Below are positions 363 through 16,400 of a stretch of DNA of 45,575 nt, in pieces; positions within the stretch are counted from its first letter, which is position 1, and every line of letters starts with the position of its first letter. A program made the translations under genes and the position numbers. Under the pieces are notes generated by a model. That model saw nothing but the letters and a program-made list of their open reading frames with translations, did no database searches and was not told where the DNA came from. Source of the stretch: Syncephalis plumigaleata (lineage: Eukaryota > Zoopagomycota > Zoopagomycetes > Zoopagales > Piptocephalidaceae); assembly GCA_025201365.1 (NCBI GenBank), contig JAIXMF010000076.1, positions 1-45,575 of the forward strand, given 5' to 3'.

Positions 363-826
363 AACTTGAAACCGATTCACAGACTAGCCTAGGAACCACG
401 CTTACAACAACAGAATCAATAGGTGCAAACAAAGCGCCACAAGTCTTCTTAGACAAATTGTAAGTGATATACGTGATAAATTATGATAATAATACATTAC
501 TAACTGATCTACTTTATTATAGCTTAAACCATTACATGGACAACTCTCATGGTATCCTCACAAATGTACCTGGTTCACCGAGGGAGCTCTACTTTGCTAA
601 TGGTGCTGAAAAGCATCGTATTATCTCGTGTATCATATACCGGCCCACACTGTTTGAAGGATCAACCAGTATTGCTATCGCCTCGTATAATGGCGATGTT
701 AGAATAGGCCCCATCGCGGATGACTTGCCCGTGTATCCGGACCAAGCACGTGTAATGGCAGATGGCATTTATACAGCATTCCAAAAGATGCTACTGGATG
801 CTTGTGATGGGCCTGAGTCGTTGTAA
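363..826 (+). pseudogene. Truncated WS/DGAT-like acyltransferase, C-terminal end (copy 1)
   Basis: Two exons are visible, about 363-459 and 523-826. They are joined by a 63-bp intron (460-522) with a GTAAGT donor, a TACTAAC-type branch site and a TATAG acceptor. The joined frame reads ...VFLDKF-LNHYMDNSHGIL followed by TNVPGSP, then IASYNGDVRIGPIADD. This resembles the C-terminal (DUF1298-type) domain of the wax-ester-synthase/diacylglycerol-acyltransferase family, where a TNVPGP motif is followed by an 'SYNG.v..G...D' segment. Only about 130 residues remain of a family that usually has 450-500, and the N-terminal HHxxxDG acyltransferase half is absent. The first 90 bases of the window already match a kinase 3' flank, so there is no room for the rest. 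I read it as a gene fragment duplicated together with the kinase. The 5' edge of the first exon is uncertain. Confidence 0.6.
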
Positions 827-2720
827 TAAGCAAAGCAATGTATTCGAGCATTATTTCATTCGTATATTTATAATAATAATACAGCTGTTGTTGTGTCAAT
901 ATACAAAAGTAAATACTATGATCTGGGTTTATTTAACATGGTAGCACATGATGGCTGGTTAGCATTCAGCTATATGTTTGTTGGAATGATAACACCAGTA
1001 CCGAGGTAGTTCTCATTCAATACAGGAATTTCTTAGGGGAACACAAGGAGAAAGAAAATAAGTTTTAAAGCCACGTCACCTTCTCCCTTAATCAAGTAAG
1101 TAGCATCATGGTGGTTACTAGATTGGAAAGCTCAATAAATTAGACACACCACTTACATGAGGACCGTCGTGGTAAGTAAGCTTGCGGTGGCATATGGAAG
1201 ACGAATGAACAGAAAAGATGGAACATTTGCCATTGCTGCAAGCTATTTAAGCATGCGCTGATAGATGCTTCGCTGCGAGTCGGTATAATTTTCGACATCA
1301 TACACTTCATCTGCATTTTTACAATCAATTAAATCATGTTCAAGTCTGCAGCTATGTTTCTTGTTGCCTTGAAGGTAGTTACTCTTATCCTAAGCGTGCC
1401 CACTATACTAGCAAGTCCGGTACGGTCTGAAATCAATCAAGGTATGTATTCAGTCATTATGTTGTGATGTGCGTATATTAACATAGCAGTTGATTAGGTA
1501 CAATCAATCCCAATATCTTCCTGGGAGCACCGATTACAAGTATACAGCAACATTTTATTCCACACGGAGTTGCACTTATCAAAACAATCGGAGGCAATAA
1601 TGATCAAAATGTTGCGCTTGCAGATGGAAAATATAAAGGTGCGCGTGCATTTATAAAATGTGTGGCTCCTCTACCAACTGGAACATCAGGATCTGATCCC
1701 CAGGGAGATATAGCCAAGGAAAAGGCAGCATTCTTGGTAAGATACTTGACATTTATTGTATTCACATACTAATCATGTTTCTTTTTCGCTTTTCTATCTA
1801 GATTCTTCAAGAGGCCGATGCTCGACCGGGAAGCAACAATCTAGTTGGCTATACCAATGTTTCCCGTGCTTATACGCATTTTGCATATGGGAATAATTAT
1901 TGCTTTGTATACTCGTACGACGGCGATATTGATCTAGCTGAATACCTTCGCAGTATATGGCCAAACAACATCCCAGCGATATCGTCGGGTAACATCCTAT
2001 TGGTACGCTCACTCATTAGTGATATCTTAAGTGGACTTATTTACTTGCATAATGCGCATTTGGTCCACCACGATATCAAGACGCATAACGTTGTTATTTC
2101 ATTCCCTTATCCCAATACTCCGCAACGACCAAAGGCGACCATTATTGACTTTGACCTTTCAGAGAGAATACAATATAATGGTAACTCTGTTGTCCCGACT
2201 AACAAACAAGTAGGAACCATGTCCTATATAGCGCCAGAAGTTTTTGCCCACCATCTAGCTGACCCTACGAAAAAAGATGTCTGGGCAGCTGGTATTACAC
2301 TTTATAAATTATTAACAAAGAGGTATCTAATAAGTGGTAATGATGACAGGGCGCTTGCTGTAAATATCGCGAATACATTTTCCCATGAACTTCCAGAACA
2401 ACTTTTCGTTTTTACTGGACCACAATTCCAACAAGCGGAAGTGAGTTCGTTGATCAATGCTCTCAAAGCTATGCTGGAGACTCACCCTACAAATCGGCCA
2501 TCCGCCAGAGAGTGCTTAGCTATTCTCAATGGAGCTAATCCACCACCTAGAACGCAACCAATCATGCCATCATTAACACCCTCCCAACAAGCAACAATTC
2601 CTGGAGGTTCAATGCCTGTGGAATTTGTAGAATCATCGTCAGGAAGGCCTACATCCGTTTTCTCTAATAAAGTATGGATACACCCATAGGAAACCGTATT
2701 ACGTTCATGCCTATATATGA
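489..2720. repeat. Segmental duplication unit, copy 1
   Basis: This unit recurs at about 10655-12890. It contains the WS/DGAT fragment, a gene-free spacer (827-1335) and the secreted-kinase gene. In the spacer I count about 11 differences in 509 bp against 10993-11501, and about 9 in 304 bp over the fragment. Similarity ends about 30 bp after the kinase stop. The spacer must carry the kinase promoter; I see no other gene in it. The left junction falls inside the intron of the WS/DGAT fragment, near ATAATACATTACTAA. Confidence 0.85.
1336..2689 (+). CDS. Predicted secreted protein kinase-like protein (copy 1)
   Basis: Three exons (1336-1441, 1498-1736, 1802-2689) give 410 aa. Both introns are short (56 and 65 bp) with GTATGT and GTAAGA donors. 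The N-terminus is a typical signal peptide: a basic MFK start, a hydrophobic core around residues 7-25, and a likely cut after ILA-S. A protein kinase fold follows, with a VAIK-like AFIK (Lys89), HHDIKTHN (catalytic-loop Asp206, Asn211; His replaces the usual Arg of HRD), DFD (Asp231; Asp replaces the Gly of DFG), APE near 259-261 and DVWAAG in helix F. The key catalytic residues are present, so activity is possible, though the Gly-rich loop is weak. The C-tail after about residue 350 is Pro/Ser/Thr-rich. No transmembrane segment is seen after the signal peptide, so secretion or lumenal residence is inferred. The gene is a paralogue of 11502-12864. I do not recognise a named family. Confidence 0.85.
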
Positions 2721-10583: not shown

Positions 10584-10654
10584 CAAGGTTTTTCCAATCG
10601 ACTAGCGTTGTTAGGCTTTAACTATTGCTCTTTATTAATAAATAATATTGCACA
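10584..10654. repeat. Dispersed 3'-end element, copy C
   Basis: Contains AAGGTTTTTCCAATCGACTAGCG and TTATTAATAAATAATATTGCAC, matching copies A and B; the upstream hairpin is weak here. It starts 20 bp after the OPT stop. Its right edge is exactly where duplication unit 2 begins. Confidence 0.6.
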
Positions 10655-10688
10655 ATAATACATTACTAATTGATCTACTTTATTATAG

Positions 10689-10992
10689 CTTAAACCATTA
10701 CATGGACAACTCTCATGGTATCCTCACAAATGTACCTGGTTCACCGAGGGAGCTCTACTTTGCTAATGGTGCTGAAAAGCATCGTATTATCTCGTGTATC
10801 ATGTACCCGCCCACACTGTTTGAAGGATCAACCGGTATTGCTATCACTTCGTATAATGGCGATGTTAGAATAGGAACCATTGCGGATGACTTGCCCGTGT
10901 ATCCGGACCAAGCACGTGTAATGGCAGATGGCATTTATACAGCATTCCAAAAGATGCTACTGGATGCTTGTGATGGGCCTGAGTCGTTGTAA
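10689..10992 (+). pseudogene. Truncated WS/DGAT-like acyltransferase exon (copy 2)
   Basis: This is the same last exon as 523-826: LNHYMDNSHGIL, TNVPGSP and SYNGDVRIGTIADD are all present. The branch site and TTATAG acceptor upstream survive, but the donor and all earlier exons are replaced by the OPT 3' flank, so it cannot make a complete enzyme. It is a clear fragment carried along with the kinase unit. Confidence 0.7.
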
Positions 10993-11501
10993 TAAGCAAA
11001 GCAATGTATTCGAGCATTATTTCATTCGTATATTTATAATAATAATACAGCTGTTGTTGTGTCAATATACAAAAGTAAATACTATGATCTGGGTTTATTT
11101 AGCATGGCAGCACTTGATGGCTGGTTAACATTCAGCTATATGTTTGTTGGAATGATAGCACCAGTACCGAGGTAGTTCTCATTCAATACAGGAATTTCTT
11201 AGGGGAACACAAGGAGAAAGAAAATAAGTTTTAAAGCCACATCACCTTCTCCCTTAATCAAGTAAGTAACATCATGGTGATTACTAGATTGGAAAGCTCA
11301 ATAAATTAGACACACCACTTACATGAGGACCGTCGTGGTAAGTAAGCTTGCGGTGGCATATGGAAGACGAATGAACAGAAAAGATGGAGCATTTGCCATT
11401 GCTGCAAGCTATTTAAGCATGCGCTGTTAGATGCTTCGCTGCGAGTCGGTATAATTTTCGACATCATACACTTCATCTGCATTTTTACGATCAATTAAAT
11501 C

Positions 11502-12864
11502 ATGTTCAAGTCTGCAGCTACGTTTCTTGTTGCCTTGAAGGCAGTTACTCTTATCCTAAGCGTGCCCACTATACTAGCAAGTCCGGTACGGTCTGAAACC
11601 AAGCGAGGTATGTATTCAGTCATTATGTTGTGATGTGCGTATATTAACATAGCAATTGATTAGGTAAAATCGATCCCAATGTCTTCCTGGGAGCACAGAT
11701 CGCAAATATACAAAGCCACTTTACTCCACACAGAGCTACACTTATCGCAACAATTGGAGGCAATAATGATCAAGACATTGCGCTTGCATATGGAAAATAT
11801 GGAGAATCAGCTGCATTTATCAAATGTCTAACTCAGCAACCATTCGAAGGAACAGCATTTGATCGAAAGGTAGAGATAGACAGAGAAAGGGAGGCATTCT
11901 TGGTAAGATACTTGACATTTATTGTATGCACATACTAATCATGTTCCTTTTTCGCTTTTCTATCTAGGCCCTTAAAGAGGCTGATGCTCGACCGGGAAGC
12001 AACAAGCTAATTGGCTATACCAATGTTTCCCGTGCTTATACGCATTTTGGCTACTTGAATAACTATTGCTTCGTATACTCGTACGACGGCGATATTGATC
12101 TAGCTCATTATTATGAAATGGCATCGCCAGATAAGACCCCACTGGTGTCGCCGGATAACATCCCACTGATACGCTCGCTCATTACTGATATCTTGAGTGG
12201 AATTATTTACTTGCATAATGCTCAACTGGTCCACCACGATATTAAGCTGGATAATGTTGCTATTTCATTTCCATATCCCAATGACAAAAGCAAGCCAAAA
12301 GCCACAATCATTGACTTTGATATTTCAGAAAGAATACGTTATAATGGAAAAGATGTCGTCCCGACTAACAACCGTGTAGGAACCAGACTTTATTTACCAC
12401 CAGAAGTTTTTGCCGGATGGAAAGCAGACCCTAGGAAAAAAGATGTCTGGGCAGTTGGTATTTCACTTTATATATTGTTAAAGGAAACGTTCCTATTTGA
12501 TGCTGAGAGTAAAACTACAGTGGCTCGTAACATTATGAATACACTTTATTATGGAATTCCAGATACAAATTTCGTTTTCACTAAAGCACAAAAACGACAA
12601 GAGGGGATGGACTCGTTGGTCAAAGCTCTCAAGGCTATGCTAACGCCTAATCCTGCAAAACGACCATCCGCCAGCGAGTGCTTAGCTATCCTTAATGGAG
12701 CTAATCCACCACCTAGAATGCAACCAACCATGTCATCAGGAACATCCACCCAATTAGAAACAATTACTGAAGGTATAGGATCTATTAGATTTAGATCTGG
12801 ATCACGGAACAACAATCAACGGAATGTACCCATTGCATCTAGTGGCACATTGGTTCCCCAATAG
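11502..12864 (+). CDS. Predicted secreted protein kinase-like protein (copy 2)
   Basis: Three exons (11502-11607, 11664-11902, 11968-12864) give 413 aa, with introns identical in size to copy 1 (56 and 65 bp). The signal peptide is nearly unchanged (MFKSAATFLVALKAVTLILS). Kinase motifs are AFIK (Lys89), HHDIKLDN, DFD and, instead of APE, PPE (GTRLYLPPE). Comparing the paralogues shows that AFIK, not the upstream LIK of copy 1, holds the conserved ATP-site lysine, because that earlier Lys is Ala here. The C-terminal tail is Ser/Thr/Asn-rich and unlike that of copy 1. Exon 2 differs from copy 1 at about 59 of 239 bases, mostly changing amino acids, while the introns differ at only three sites. 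Lumenal or extracellular location is inferred. Confidence 0.85.
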
Positions 12865-13407
12865 GAAATCGTATTGCGCTCATGTCTATGCCTTATGCAA
12901 CAACAGCTTCAGCAATCTACGAATACACATGGTACACACATAGAATCTACAAAAGCACAATAAGTTGGAGGCCATTCCTTTAGACATCTAGCTATGCACA
13001 CAACTGCTACTCCCGGAATGTTATCCAGCTTATTGCGCTTTTACCCATTGCTTTATGTAAGCTTAATTTATTTGATTCATTTATGATAAAGCTTATTCTT
13101 CTCTATCTAATGATATACAAATGATACTATCAATTATGGCGTGGAATACTTGCTCGTTTGATTTAGCAAGACATTATAACGTGAGACTAGACGAAATTAT
13201 TCGATAATTGTAGTCACGATAAATGAACAATACAGGATGAATGGTGTCGTCAGCATTAATGTATATATTCTTCCTTTATCCGTTTCATTCGACCATTTAA
13301 CCATTTTCTTATTGCGTGTCAATTACTGCACCCTCACATAACTATTACAAACTTGTATTCCACGTAACAATTGCAAATAGATAGACGAGAGAGAAAAAAA
13401 GTAAGAG
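12865..13407. other. Intergenic region between kinase 2 and CLC
   Basis: No gene seen. About 30 bp after the stop resemble the 3' flank of kinase 1, then the sequences part. The segment 13129-13194 matches the left edge of the window (21-87). An A-rich tract GAGAGAAAAAAAG ends just before the CLC start. Confidence 0.5.
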
Positions 13408-16400
13408 ATGTCTACAGGCACCACTACCACGCCCTCACCGGATAGAGGAGCAGTTATAGGAGAGTCGACATTATCTACTTCTCCGCTTAGCCTGAATAAT
13501 AGCAACAACAATGATAGTAATAATCGCACTGTTATTACTAATGAACTAGAAGCAGTTAGACGCTACGAGGATTTCACCACTATTGGTAGGATAGTACACT
13601 ACTAGCACTTTAACTAATAGTCTGTGATAACTAATAATGATAATATTCACTATAATAGACTGGGTACGCGATACTATTCGTGAACGTGCTCGTCTTCACC
13701 GACTACAACGATTACGCGATGGCAGTTGGCGCTACTGGTTACTCGTTCTCTATGACGCGAGTCAGTCATGGATTGTCGTATTACTCGTTGGTTAGTATCT
13801 CACTGTATGTATTTATTTATTTATACCATTGACATTGACCATTTATTACAGGCATTGTCATAGGGGTTAACGCGGCATTTATCAATATTGCCACCGAATG
13901 GCTTAGTGATCTTAAGGAGGGCTATTGCTCATCTGGATGGTGGTTAAATCAAAAGTTTTGTTGTTGGGAGATCTGGGATCAAGGTAAGTAGTGTCTATCA
14001 TGTTATCAATCAATGTACAACAAGTAGTAGTACTCATTAATATCACTATATATACATATATACATATACATATACATATATCTATGTTCTAGAGGGATCA
14101 TGTCACGATTGGATAGAATGGAGTTACGCATTAGGTTTGGCTAGGGATAACTTTCTAGTTAACTGGTTGTTCTATGGAGGTTTCGCTGTAGGTTGATTAG
14201 ATTTCCATTACTACATGTCTGTGTGCATCTTTATTAATTCACTAATTGTGTAGACATTATTCTGTGGTGTCATTGGATATTTGGTCAAATATTATGCACC
14301 TTACGCTGCTGGTTCTGGTATATCGGAAATCAAAACCATTCTATGTAAGTAGAGTCGAGTAATTATTACATGATAATTAATGACAATTAGGTGGATTTGT
14401 CATTCATGGATTCCTCGGTGGATGGACGCTGTTAATTAAAAGTATCGGTCTTGTATGTATTTCATTCTAAGGATGATGTGATAGTATTAGCTGTTCCATT
14501 GTTAACTATTTCTATATATATGTCTATACGTTATATTGGTGTAGGCATTATCAGTAGGTTCAGGTATGAGTATCGGTAAGGAAGGTCCCGCTGTTCATAT
14601 GGCATGTTGTGCGGGCAATGTCGTATCACGTTTGTTTGAGAAATTTCGACATAACAAATGTAAGTTACTACACTTTCGTATTACTATTATGATAAATCTA
14701 ACGTAAACTACTGCTTAATAATTATAGCCAAGAAACGAGAGATCATTACTGCAGCATCTGCAGCGGGTGTTGGTGTAGCATTTGGTTCACCTATCGGCGG
14801 TGTTCTATTCGCATTAGAGGTAGCTAATTGCAATTGTATAACTTGTATACGTGTCTATTCATGTTTATTCATTCGCTATATCGTATTAACTAGGAAATGA
14901 GCTCGCAATTTACTTTGAAAACAATGTGGCGTAGTTTCTTCTGTGCCATGGTGGCCACTGTTGTACTCAAGGCAAGACATCGTTAATTGATCTATGTATT
15001 CATGGCGTGTCTCCATTTTATTAACCAACAAGTAAACATAGGCTATCAATCCATTCCGTACGGGAAATCTTGTCATGTTTCAGGCAACCTATGATCGCGA
15101 CTGGCATTTCTTTGAGATTATTCTATTCGTGCTTATTGGACTGTTTGGTGTGAGTAGTTTAATGAAAATAATGACATACATACATATATATATATATATA
15201 TACGGTATTCGTGATCTAATTGACGTGGCAACTATTCAGGGATTGTATGGCGCTGTAGTGATTAAATATAATCTAAAGGTGGCAAAATTACGTAAAAAAT
15301 ATCTTGCTCAATATGGAGTACAAGAAGTAATGCTACTTGCACTAGTTACAACTATGCTAGGCTATTTTAACATGTTTCTAAGGTTAGATAGGTCTATAAA
15401 AGTATTGTACCATGGATGACTAACGTATTCATTGATGATATAGACTGGATATGACTGAACTCATGTCGATTTTATTTAAAGAATGCGAAAAAGGCGATTT
15501 CAATGGGCTATGCCAGTAATTATTACTATTAATGACGTACTAGTATGAATAAACACGCTAATATCAATGCAATTATAGACAAACGCAAACTACTCGAATG
15601 GTTCGACTGCTGTTATGGGCCACGGTAATGCGTATTGGATTCACGATTATCTCATATGGTTGTAAAGTAAGTAATGTAAAATAATATGTCATATCTAACT
15701 GAACCATCATTATCATCATGTTGATTGTTGTTATAGGTACCGGCTGGTATATTTGTGCCATCCATGGCTATTGGTGCATGTTTCGGTCGTACAGTTGGCA
15801 TGATCGTTCAATCTTTACAACAGTAAGTGGTTGTCATTACATTGTCTATGCTATGCTGTGCAACTATACTAAAAGAAACACGTTCATCTAGTACCTATCC
15901 CAACTTTTTCCTATTCTCCAGTTGTCATCCCGATATCCCTGTAAGTATTATGTCGTATAATGTGATATCGATTATATTTACTGGATATTGATGTTACATT
16001 AGTGTATTACACCGGGTGCGTATGCATTCCTTGGAGCAGCTGCAGCATTATGGTGAGTGACTAGTGAATAGATTGTATGATTAACTAGCTAATCTAATAC
16101 AAATGATTGTCATCTAGTGGTGTCACAAAAATGACAGGTAGCATTTATGATGTAGAAATTATAGTAGCAATTGATAGACTAATAGCATGAGTATAGTCTC
16201 ATTGGTGGTCATCATGTTCGAGTTGACCGGTGCTCTAGATTATATTCTACCAACAATGGCAAGTGATCTAGTCTAACAAGACAATGACATACTTATAAAT
16301 GTGTCATCATCATATAGATTGTGGCTATGGTGGCCAAGGCCGTAGGAGATCGCTTCTATATGGGTGGAATATATCCTTTAGTGTGATGTTCATTAGTGAT

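What the first reader, a model, noticed from the sequence alone, without database searches (positions are those of the whole stretch)
11502..12864. Kinase paralogues: exons differ far more than introns and flanking DNA
Comparing 1336-2689 with 11502-12864, exon 2 differs at about 59 of 239 bases, mostly changing the amino acid. Intron 1 differs at 1 of 56, intron 2 at 2 of 65, and the upstream spacer at about 11 of 509. Exon 1 (signal peptide) is nearly identical. Neutral sequence normally diverges fastest, so this inversion points to strong diversifying selection on the mature protein, as seen in toxin, venom and effector families, or to conversion that homogenises the non-coding parts. Secreted kinases in an arms race with a host or prey is an attractive hypothesis. 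Counts are by eye.
Basis: seen in the sequence. Interest (0 to 1): 0.85.

Follow-up and report, generated by a model that had tools for sequence, protein, structure and literature searches.

The report
Kinase family with diversified substrate pockets
A fungus that lives on other fungi carries about a dozen copies of a probably secreted enzyme; copying between the genes keeps their non-coding DNA alike, while the residues expected to choose the enzyme's targets are kept strikingly different, which suggests a parasite that diversifies what its kinases act on.

Summary
In detail: between the two window genes exon 2 differs at 58/239 bases, introns at 1/56 and 2/65, upstream DNA at 11/501. The contig is one haplotype of the mycoparasitic fungus Syncephalis plumigaleata; 14 copies were found in the assembly. 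Selection alone does not explain it. In exon 3 even synonymous sites of unchanged codons differ at 30/154 against 3/121 in introns; in exon 2 this excess is weak (5/43; fourfold sites 0/17) and amino-acid change dominates. Gene conversion is shown directly: g1 carries a neighbour-like upstream region on its own lineage's gene body, and C112_1059 carries a ~560-base tract of its tandem neighbour that its allele lacks. Selection acts too: site models favour it even with one tree per 12 codons (2dlnL 58). The varying residues are not random: ten positions that in PKA set peptide specificity carry 4.6 residue types on average against 1.9 elsewhere, peaking exactly in register, while 14 catalytic-core positions never vary. 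Best reading: conversion homogenises neutral DNA and shuffles exon blocks; selection keeps the substrate pocket diverse. Conserved-intron patterns are known from opsins and venoms; the closest functional analogue is Plasmodium FIKK. Secretion and host targeting are inferred.

The parts
1336..1441 (+). g1 exon 1: hydrophobic N-terminus, probable signal peptide
   Evidence: hydropathy
1442..1497 (+). g1 intron 1 (56 nt, GT-AG)
1498..1736 (+). g1 exon 2: kinase N-lobe, lysine in AFIKC
1737..1801 (+). g1 intron 2 (65 nt, GT-AG)
1802..2689 (+). g1 exon 3: rest of kinase domain and variable tail, stop 2687-2689
488..1335 (+). g1 upstream homology unit shared with the other copies; 14 of 16 diagnostic sites like the neighbouring group-B copies
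11502..11607 (+). g2 exon 1
11608..11663 (+). g2 intron 1
11664..11902 (+). g2 exon 2
11903..11967 (+). g2 intron 2
11968..12864 (+). g2 exon 3, stop 12862-12864
10654..11501 (+). g2 upstream homology unit
12103..12117 (+). g2 codons 161-165, helix D region: variable positions aligned with PKA Phe129 and Arg133
12247..12252 (+). g2 codons 209-210, aligned with PKA Pro169 and Glu170
12373..12396 (+). g2 codons 251-258, P+1 loop (PKA Leu198-Leu205), most variable stretch
12472..12474 (+). g2 codon 284, aligned with PKA Glu230

Best explanation
The two genes belong to a Syncephalis family of probably secreted, probably active protein kinases. Three steps. (1) Shown: copies exchange sequence by gene conversion or unequal recombination, over the 1-kb upstream unit, the introns and blocks of the exons. 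(2) Inferred from (1) and the divergence pattern: neutral stretches (upstream, introns, probably the signal-peptide exon) therefore share a recent common history, while divergent exon lineages are retained because selection keeps them, so exon divergence is older and larger. (3) Statistically supported but not tested in the laboratory: the retained diversity lies in the substrate-binding residues, with an invariant catalytic core, so the copies should phosphorylate different motifs. That the targets are host (Mucorales-type fungal) proteins is inference.
For: 14 copies share the upstream unit at 91-97%; both introns are GT-AG in 14 of 14. 13-copy pooled values: exon 2 pS .164 pN .165, exon 3 pS .17-.26, upstream .055, intron 1 .048, intron 2 .074. 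Chimeras: g1 upstream 14 of 16 sites neighbour-like, exon 3 121 of 127 and 3' flank 118 of 118 own-lineage; C112_1059 exon 3 has 79 of 79 consecutive diagnostic sites (1824-2383) like its tandem neighbour, while exon 2 has 36 of 41 like its allele. PHI: 0 of 1000 permutations for 11 copies. M2a over M1a 2dlnL 129, 88, 58 for 40-, 20-, 12-codon trees. Specificity positions 4.6 against 1.9 residue types, p 1e-5; 0 of 100,000 random sets as high; shifted sets 1.2-3.0; 6 of 10 among the 15 selected sites of 301. Control: a second kinase subfamily at two of the same gene clusters differs by 0-4.9% in exons, introns and flanks alike.
Against: Exon 2 fourfold sites differ at 0 of 17 in the focal pair and 18 of 650 over 30 pairs, i.e. 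at intron level, so old divergence is not shown for exon 2. Window pN did not correlate with fourfold divergence (rho 0.21, p 0.28). LRTs shrink as trees get more local, so part of the signal is recombination; 12 codons may still hold breakpoints. Closest allele pair: exon 2 has 27 N and 4 S changes, Fisher p 0.09. The specificity list was drawn up after one search had shown the selected sites; one of its ten positions (159) is invariant. No signal-peptide program, expression or activity data. A short-read or haplotig artefact in the assembly cannot be excluded.
Confidence: 0.68

Rival explanations
1. Pure diversifying selection on recent duplicates, without conversion: introns and flank are simply young.
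For: Exon 2 fourfold sites 0/17; exon 1 has 5 nonsynonymous and 0 synonymous changes between g1 and g2; M2a support.
Against: Exon 3 same-residue synonymous sites differ at 30/154 against 3/121 in introns, p 5e-6; 3' flanks of the two groups are unrelated (.585); upstream and exon trees disagree.
Confidence: 0.08
2. Conversion alone, with exon blocks imported from divergent paralogues and no selection for diversity.
For: Mosaic blocks and strong PHI signal.
Against: Random tracts would homogenise exons and introns alike; two introns of 56 and 65 bases stay alike between diverged exons; variability peaks on specificity positions while 14 core positions are fixed.
Confidence: 0.12
3. Introns and upstream DNA are under strong functional constraint.
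For: 1 kb of upstream DNA is alike in 10 of 14 copies over its whole length.
Against: Introns do vary among copies, up to 16% in intron 2; upstream DNA includes a carried-along acyltransferase tail as alike as the rest; no intron similarity was found by blastn between this family and subfamily C, whose only hit was 109 bases of coding sequence.
Confidence: 0.07
4. Relaxed constraint: copies are decaying and drift freely.
For: 3 of 14 copies have shortened exon 3 frames (30, 193, 240 codons).
Against: 11 of 14 have exon 3 frames of 281-308 codons; catalytic-core positions are invariant in 13.
Confidence: 0.05

Closest known systems
Primate L/M opsin genes (gibbons, PMC3213168; abstract and section 12 read)
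   Same: Paralogue exons more diverged than introns, both synonymous and non-synonymous above intron level, conversion tracts mostly in introns, selection against homogenised exons.
   Different: Two genes, no dN excess there; here 14 copies, hypervariable pocket residues and exon blocks shuffled too.
Snake three-finger toxin genes, ASSET (PMC2474615; abstract read)
   Same: Introns alike between copies, exon segments switched on a conserved fold.
   Different: Small non-enzymatic toxins; here an enzyme with a fixed catalytic core.
Plasmodium FIKK exported kinases (PMC12137140; abstract, outline and passages read)
   Same: Expanded parasite kinase family, conserved ATP site, fast-evolving peptide-binding area, diverged substrate motifs.
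   Different: Different organisms; motif here is FIKC, not FIKK; exon/intron conversion pattern not reported in the passages I saw. Only computed here, not assayed.
Toxoplasma rhoptry kinases (PMC3682881; passages read)
   Same: Lineage-specific, secreted, tandemly expanded kinases.
   Different: Includes pseudokinases; here the core is intact.
MHC class I/II exons and introns (recalled)
   Same: Deep exon lineages with homogenised introns.
   Different: Recalled, no call; vertebrate immune genes.

Membership tests
Protein kinase (Pfam PF00069) | Profile match above the curated cut-off | tested here: met
   g2 96.1 and g1 99.2 bits against 31.7
Protein kinase (Pfam PF00069) | Catalytic residues (Lys, HxD, Asn, DF-, APE, DxW, Arg) | tested here: met
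   14 positions invariant in 13 copies, one copy having a gap at one position; DFD replaces DFG in 13 of 13
Protein kinase (Pfam PF00069) | Phosphotransfer activity | not testable with these tools
   sequence only; AlphaFold2 model mean pLDDT 63.8, kinase folds as best Foldseek matches
Secreted effector kinase | N-terminal signal peptide | tested here: inconclusive
   strongest hydrophobic window is N-terminal in 14 of 14 copies; no predictor run
Secreted effector kinase | Action in the host | not testable with these tools
   no expression, localisation or host data
FIKK kinases | FIKK motif | tested here: not met
   FIKC in 13 of 13
Conversion-homogenised paralogues with retained exons (opsin type) | Exon synonymous divergence above intron divergence | tested here: met
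   exon 3 met (p 5e-6); exon 2 weak: 5/43, p 0.03, fourfold 0/17
Conversion-homogenised paralogues with retained exons (opsin type) | Tree conflict between non-coding DNA and exons | tested here: met
Conversion-homogenised paralogues with retained exons (opsin type) | GENECONV tracts | not tested
   program not available; diagnostic-site runs and PHI used instead
[quoted passage not shown]
   -

The most novel reading that the evidence does not exclude
An obligate mycoparasite runs a repertoire of secreted kinases that is a specificity-shuffling system: ectopic conversion deals out exon blocks, selection targets the P+1, P-2 and P-6 pocket residues, and each copy phosphorylates a different host motif. 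It would be the fungal counterpart of Plasmodium FIKK kinases, arisen independently, with a recombination engine added.
Probability: 0.35. Interest if true: 0.88.

Novelty: new variant of a known kind. Interest (0 to 1): 0.68.

Why it matters
Effectors of fungus-on-fungus parasites are little known. If right, one gene family ties three things together that can be tested on the bench: conversion as a source of new effector combinations, selection confined to specificity residues, and an independent parallel to malaria's exported kinases. It also gives a natural set of about ten kinases that share a fold and catalytic core and differ mainly in the substrate pocket, useful for learning how sequence sets kinase specificity. 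My literature searches in the held open-access library found no paper with both Syncephalis plumigaleata and kinase, and the 11 papers with Syncephalis, mycoparasite and genome showed none on such a family by title and abstract start; subscription papers and preprints were not searched.

Tried and rejected
Considered and dropped. Compensating frameshifts as the source of amino-acid change: codons of three hypervariable stretches were read and show substitutions, not shifted frames. Subfamily C as donor of the exon blocks: 42-43% protein identity to g1 exon 3 and only 109 bases of DNA similarity. A general exon excess in this genome: not seen in subfamily C, whose exon limits I set by eye. An 11-position specificity list with PKA Tyr235 was used first (4.5 against 1.9, p 3e-6); I dropped that position because the papers' passages did not show it, leaving ten. 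Hitchhiking of synonymous sites: invariant codons 5-8 codons from a variable one have pS .053 (14 codons) against .18-.26 nearer, but fourfold sites give no trend, so I do not lean on it. Literature searches on secreted fungal kinases and on combined conversion/effector terms gave no direct match in their listings.

Rows left out: C112_963 (frame stops after 30 codons of exon 3) from every codon count, so 13 of 14; C112_966 from the upstream tree and C112_1264 from the exon 3 tree; C112_963, C112_1264 and C351_409 from the PHI set of 11; C112_1264 from the last windows. The haplotype background leaves out the four bins inside g1's unit, the bin 12866-13365 beside g2 (24/500) and a 40-base end bin.

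Full report
What the window is. The window is contig C358 of a 32.6-Mb eukaryotic assembly. A database protein named Syncephalis plumigaleata (P0005, on a 2,349,014-base contig, the length of C112) is letter for letter my spliced model of copy C112_1049. So this is that mycoparasitic fungus. C358 is the other haplotype of C112:1048353-1073500. Outside the kinase genes the two haplotypes differ at 149 of 17,240 bases, 0.86%. C112 holds one more tandem copy where C358 has g2.

The genes. g1 (1336-2689) and g2 (11502-12864) have three exons of 106, 239 and about 890 bases. Both match PF00069 (96-99 bits). The N-terminus is the most hydrophobic stretch in 14 of 14 copies, so a signal peptide is likely, though no predictor was run. 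The catalytic lysine, HxD, lysine, asparagine, DF-, APE and DxW positions are kept; DFG reads DFD in 13 of 13.

The family. The upstream DNA finds 14 copies, and exon 3 protein finds the same 14; the tool calls such counts lower bounds. Eleven have exon 3 frames of 281-308 codons; three are shorter (30, 193, 240). Some copies are alleles of each other, so the haploid number is lower; I did not settle it. Group A is g1, C112_1049 and C112_603; group B is the rest. A capped profile search (7,995 candidates) listed 17 proteins: 11 named Syncephalis (three species), two unnamed metagenome proteins, and four weak kinases.

Divergence. g1 against g2: see the observation check. Over all 78 pairs of 13 copies: exon 1 pS .043 pN .071; exon 2 .164/.165; exon 3 thirds .173/.092.261/.203.223/.198; upstream .055; intron 1 .048; intron 2 .074. 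Group A against B, 30 pairs: exon 3 pS .19-.43, introns .042 and .059, 3' flank .585. A codon model gives the focal pair dS .264 and dN .318 in exon 2, dS .19-.61 and dN .22-.40 in exon 3. A stricter count uses codons whose amino acid is unchanged: exon 3 differs at 30 of 154 third positions against 3 of 121 intron bases (p 5e-6), its fourfold sites alone at 12 of 73 (p 7e-4); exon 2 differs at 5 of 43 (p 0.03), its fourfold sites at 0 of 17. So exon 3 is older than the introns, while in exon 2 the excess is mostly amino-acid change. This result, found on re-check, weakens the old-exon argument for exon 2.

Conversion. Using sites where g1's relatives (C112_1049, C112_603) agree and its group B neighbours agree on another base, g1 matches the neighbours at 14 of 16 upstream sites, and its own lineage at 2 of 2 in exon 1, 12 of 17 in exon 2, 121 of 127 in exon 3 and 118 of 118 in the 3' flank. 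The upstream data reject group A as a clade (AU p 0.019); exon 3 has it at full support and rejects the upstream-like grouping (p about 1e-45; that grouping was chosen after the upstream distances were seen). C112_1059 is like its allele g2 in exon 2 (36 of 41) but like its tandem neighbour C112_1062 at 79 of 79 consecutive sites in 1824-2383. My own PHI implementation gives 0 of 1000 permutations for 11 copies and for the 8 of group B, 0 for exon 3, 1 for exon 2 (14 copies), 6 for upstream (13 copies). C112_1062, a B copy, shares two intron 2 states with A copies C112_1049 and C112_603. Conversion therefore reaches exons as well; it is not barred from them.

Control. A second kinase subfamily (L037, L038, L039; 42-43% protein identity) lies by two of the copies on C112 and by the copy on C371. 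Its three copies differ by 0-4.9% in exons, introns and flanks alike. The exon excess is thus special to this family, on one control.

Selection. I wrote M1a/M2a in Python (fixed kappa 3.2, one FastTree tree per window, 13 copies). 2dlnL is 129, 88 and 58 for windows of 40, 20 and 12 codons. The fall shows that recombination inflates the coarser tests; the finest is still strong (p 2e-13). Against this, mean pN/pS of exon 2 is not reliably above 1 (0.69-1.54), and the closest allele pair (27 N, 4 S in exon 2) gives p 0.09.

Where the variation sits. Motif-anchored alignment to solved kinases maps codons 159, 161, 165, 209, 210, 251, 255, 256, 258 and 284 to PKA Glu127, Phe129, Arg133, Pro169, Glu170, Leu198, Pro202, Glu203, Leu205 and Glu230; the step from those chains to PKA numbers is recalled. 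Passages of PMC1783638 give Glu127, Glu170, Glu230, Glu203 and the Leu198-Pro202-Leu205 pocket as substrate contacts; passages of PMC3219626 add Phe129, Arg133 and Pro169. These ten carry 1, 4, 5, 3, 4, 7, 7, 7, 3 and 5 residue types, mean 4.6, against 1.93 at the other 291 domain positions (p 1e-5) and 2.75 at the 155 variable ones (p 3e-4). Shifting the set by 1-12 positions either way gives 1.2-3.0; none of 100,000 random sets reached 4.6. Six of the ten are among 15 sites with posterior over 0.8 in 301 (p 1e-6). I had seen selected sites before writing the list, so these p-values are not fully independent; the shift test is the fairer one. Codons 255-256 form 10 different pairs in 13 copies. 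Fourteen core positions are invariant. Seven relatives from other species or metagenomes differ at the ten positions too; four keep every core residue that they cover, and P0006, P0013 and P0008 each depart at one.

Mechanism. Conversion keeps the copies exchanging DNA, so neutral stretches coalesce quickly. Selection keeps many pocket variants in the pool, so exon lineages persist and are recombined. Shown: exchange, mosaicism, the exon 3 synonymous excess, the concentration on pocket positions. Inferred: retention by selection, secretion, activity, and different targets. Host proteins as targets are a hypothesis.

Known parallels. Opsins (PMC3213168) and venom genes (PMC2474615) show conserved introns beside diverged exons. 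FIKK kinases (PMC12137140) show a conserved ATP site and a fast-evolving peptide-binding area; their abstract reports diverged substrate motifs. The combination in a fungal parasite is new to me and was not met in the searches named above.

Noticed in passing
window 488-834 and 10654-11000: The duplicated upstream unit carries the tail of a WS/DGAT acyltransferase (PF06974, E 4e-6, for the g1 side); database models P0004 and P0007 fuse this tail to the kinase, probably an annotation error.
   Followed up: partly
C112:1058397-1063609 (L011, L012): One haplotype has two tandem kinase copies where the window's haplotype has one (g2): copy-number difference between haplotypes.
   Followed up: partly
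C112:1259005-1259256 and C112:1263776-1264339: Two same-strand pieces match successive parts of exon 3 (residues 190-273 and 1-196 of P0001), about 4.5 kb apart: copy C112_1264 may be interrupted by an insertion.
   Followed up: no
L015-L022, copy C112_966 exon 2: C112_966 exon 2 is 281 nt instead of 239: an in-frame 14-residue tandem duplication.
   Followed up: no
window 12866-13365: The 3' flank of g2 differs from C112 at 24 of 500 bases with 27 gaps, well above the 0.86% background.
   Followed up: no
window 13400-14500: Reads by eye like the start of a CLC-type chloride channel gene with several short introns; not searched.
   Followed up: no
whole family: The beta-3 motif is FIKC in 13 of 13 copies, one letter from the FIKK motif of the apicomplexan family; likely coincidence.
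   Followed up: no
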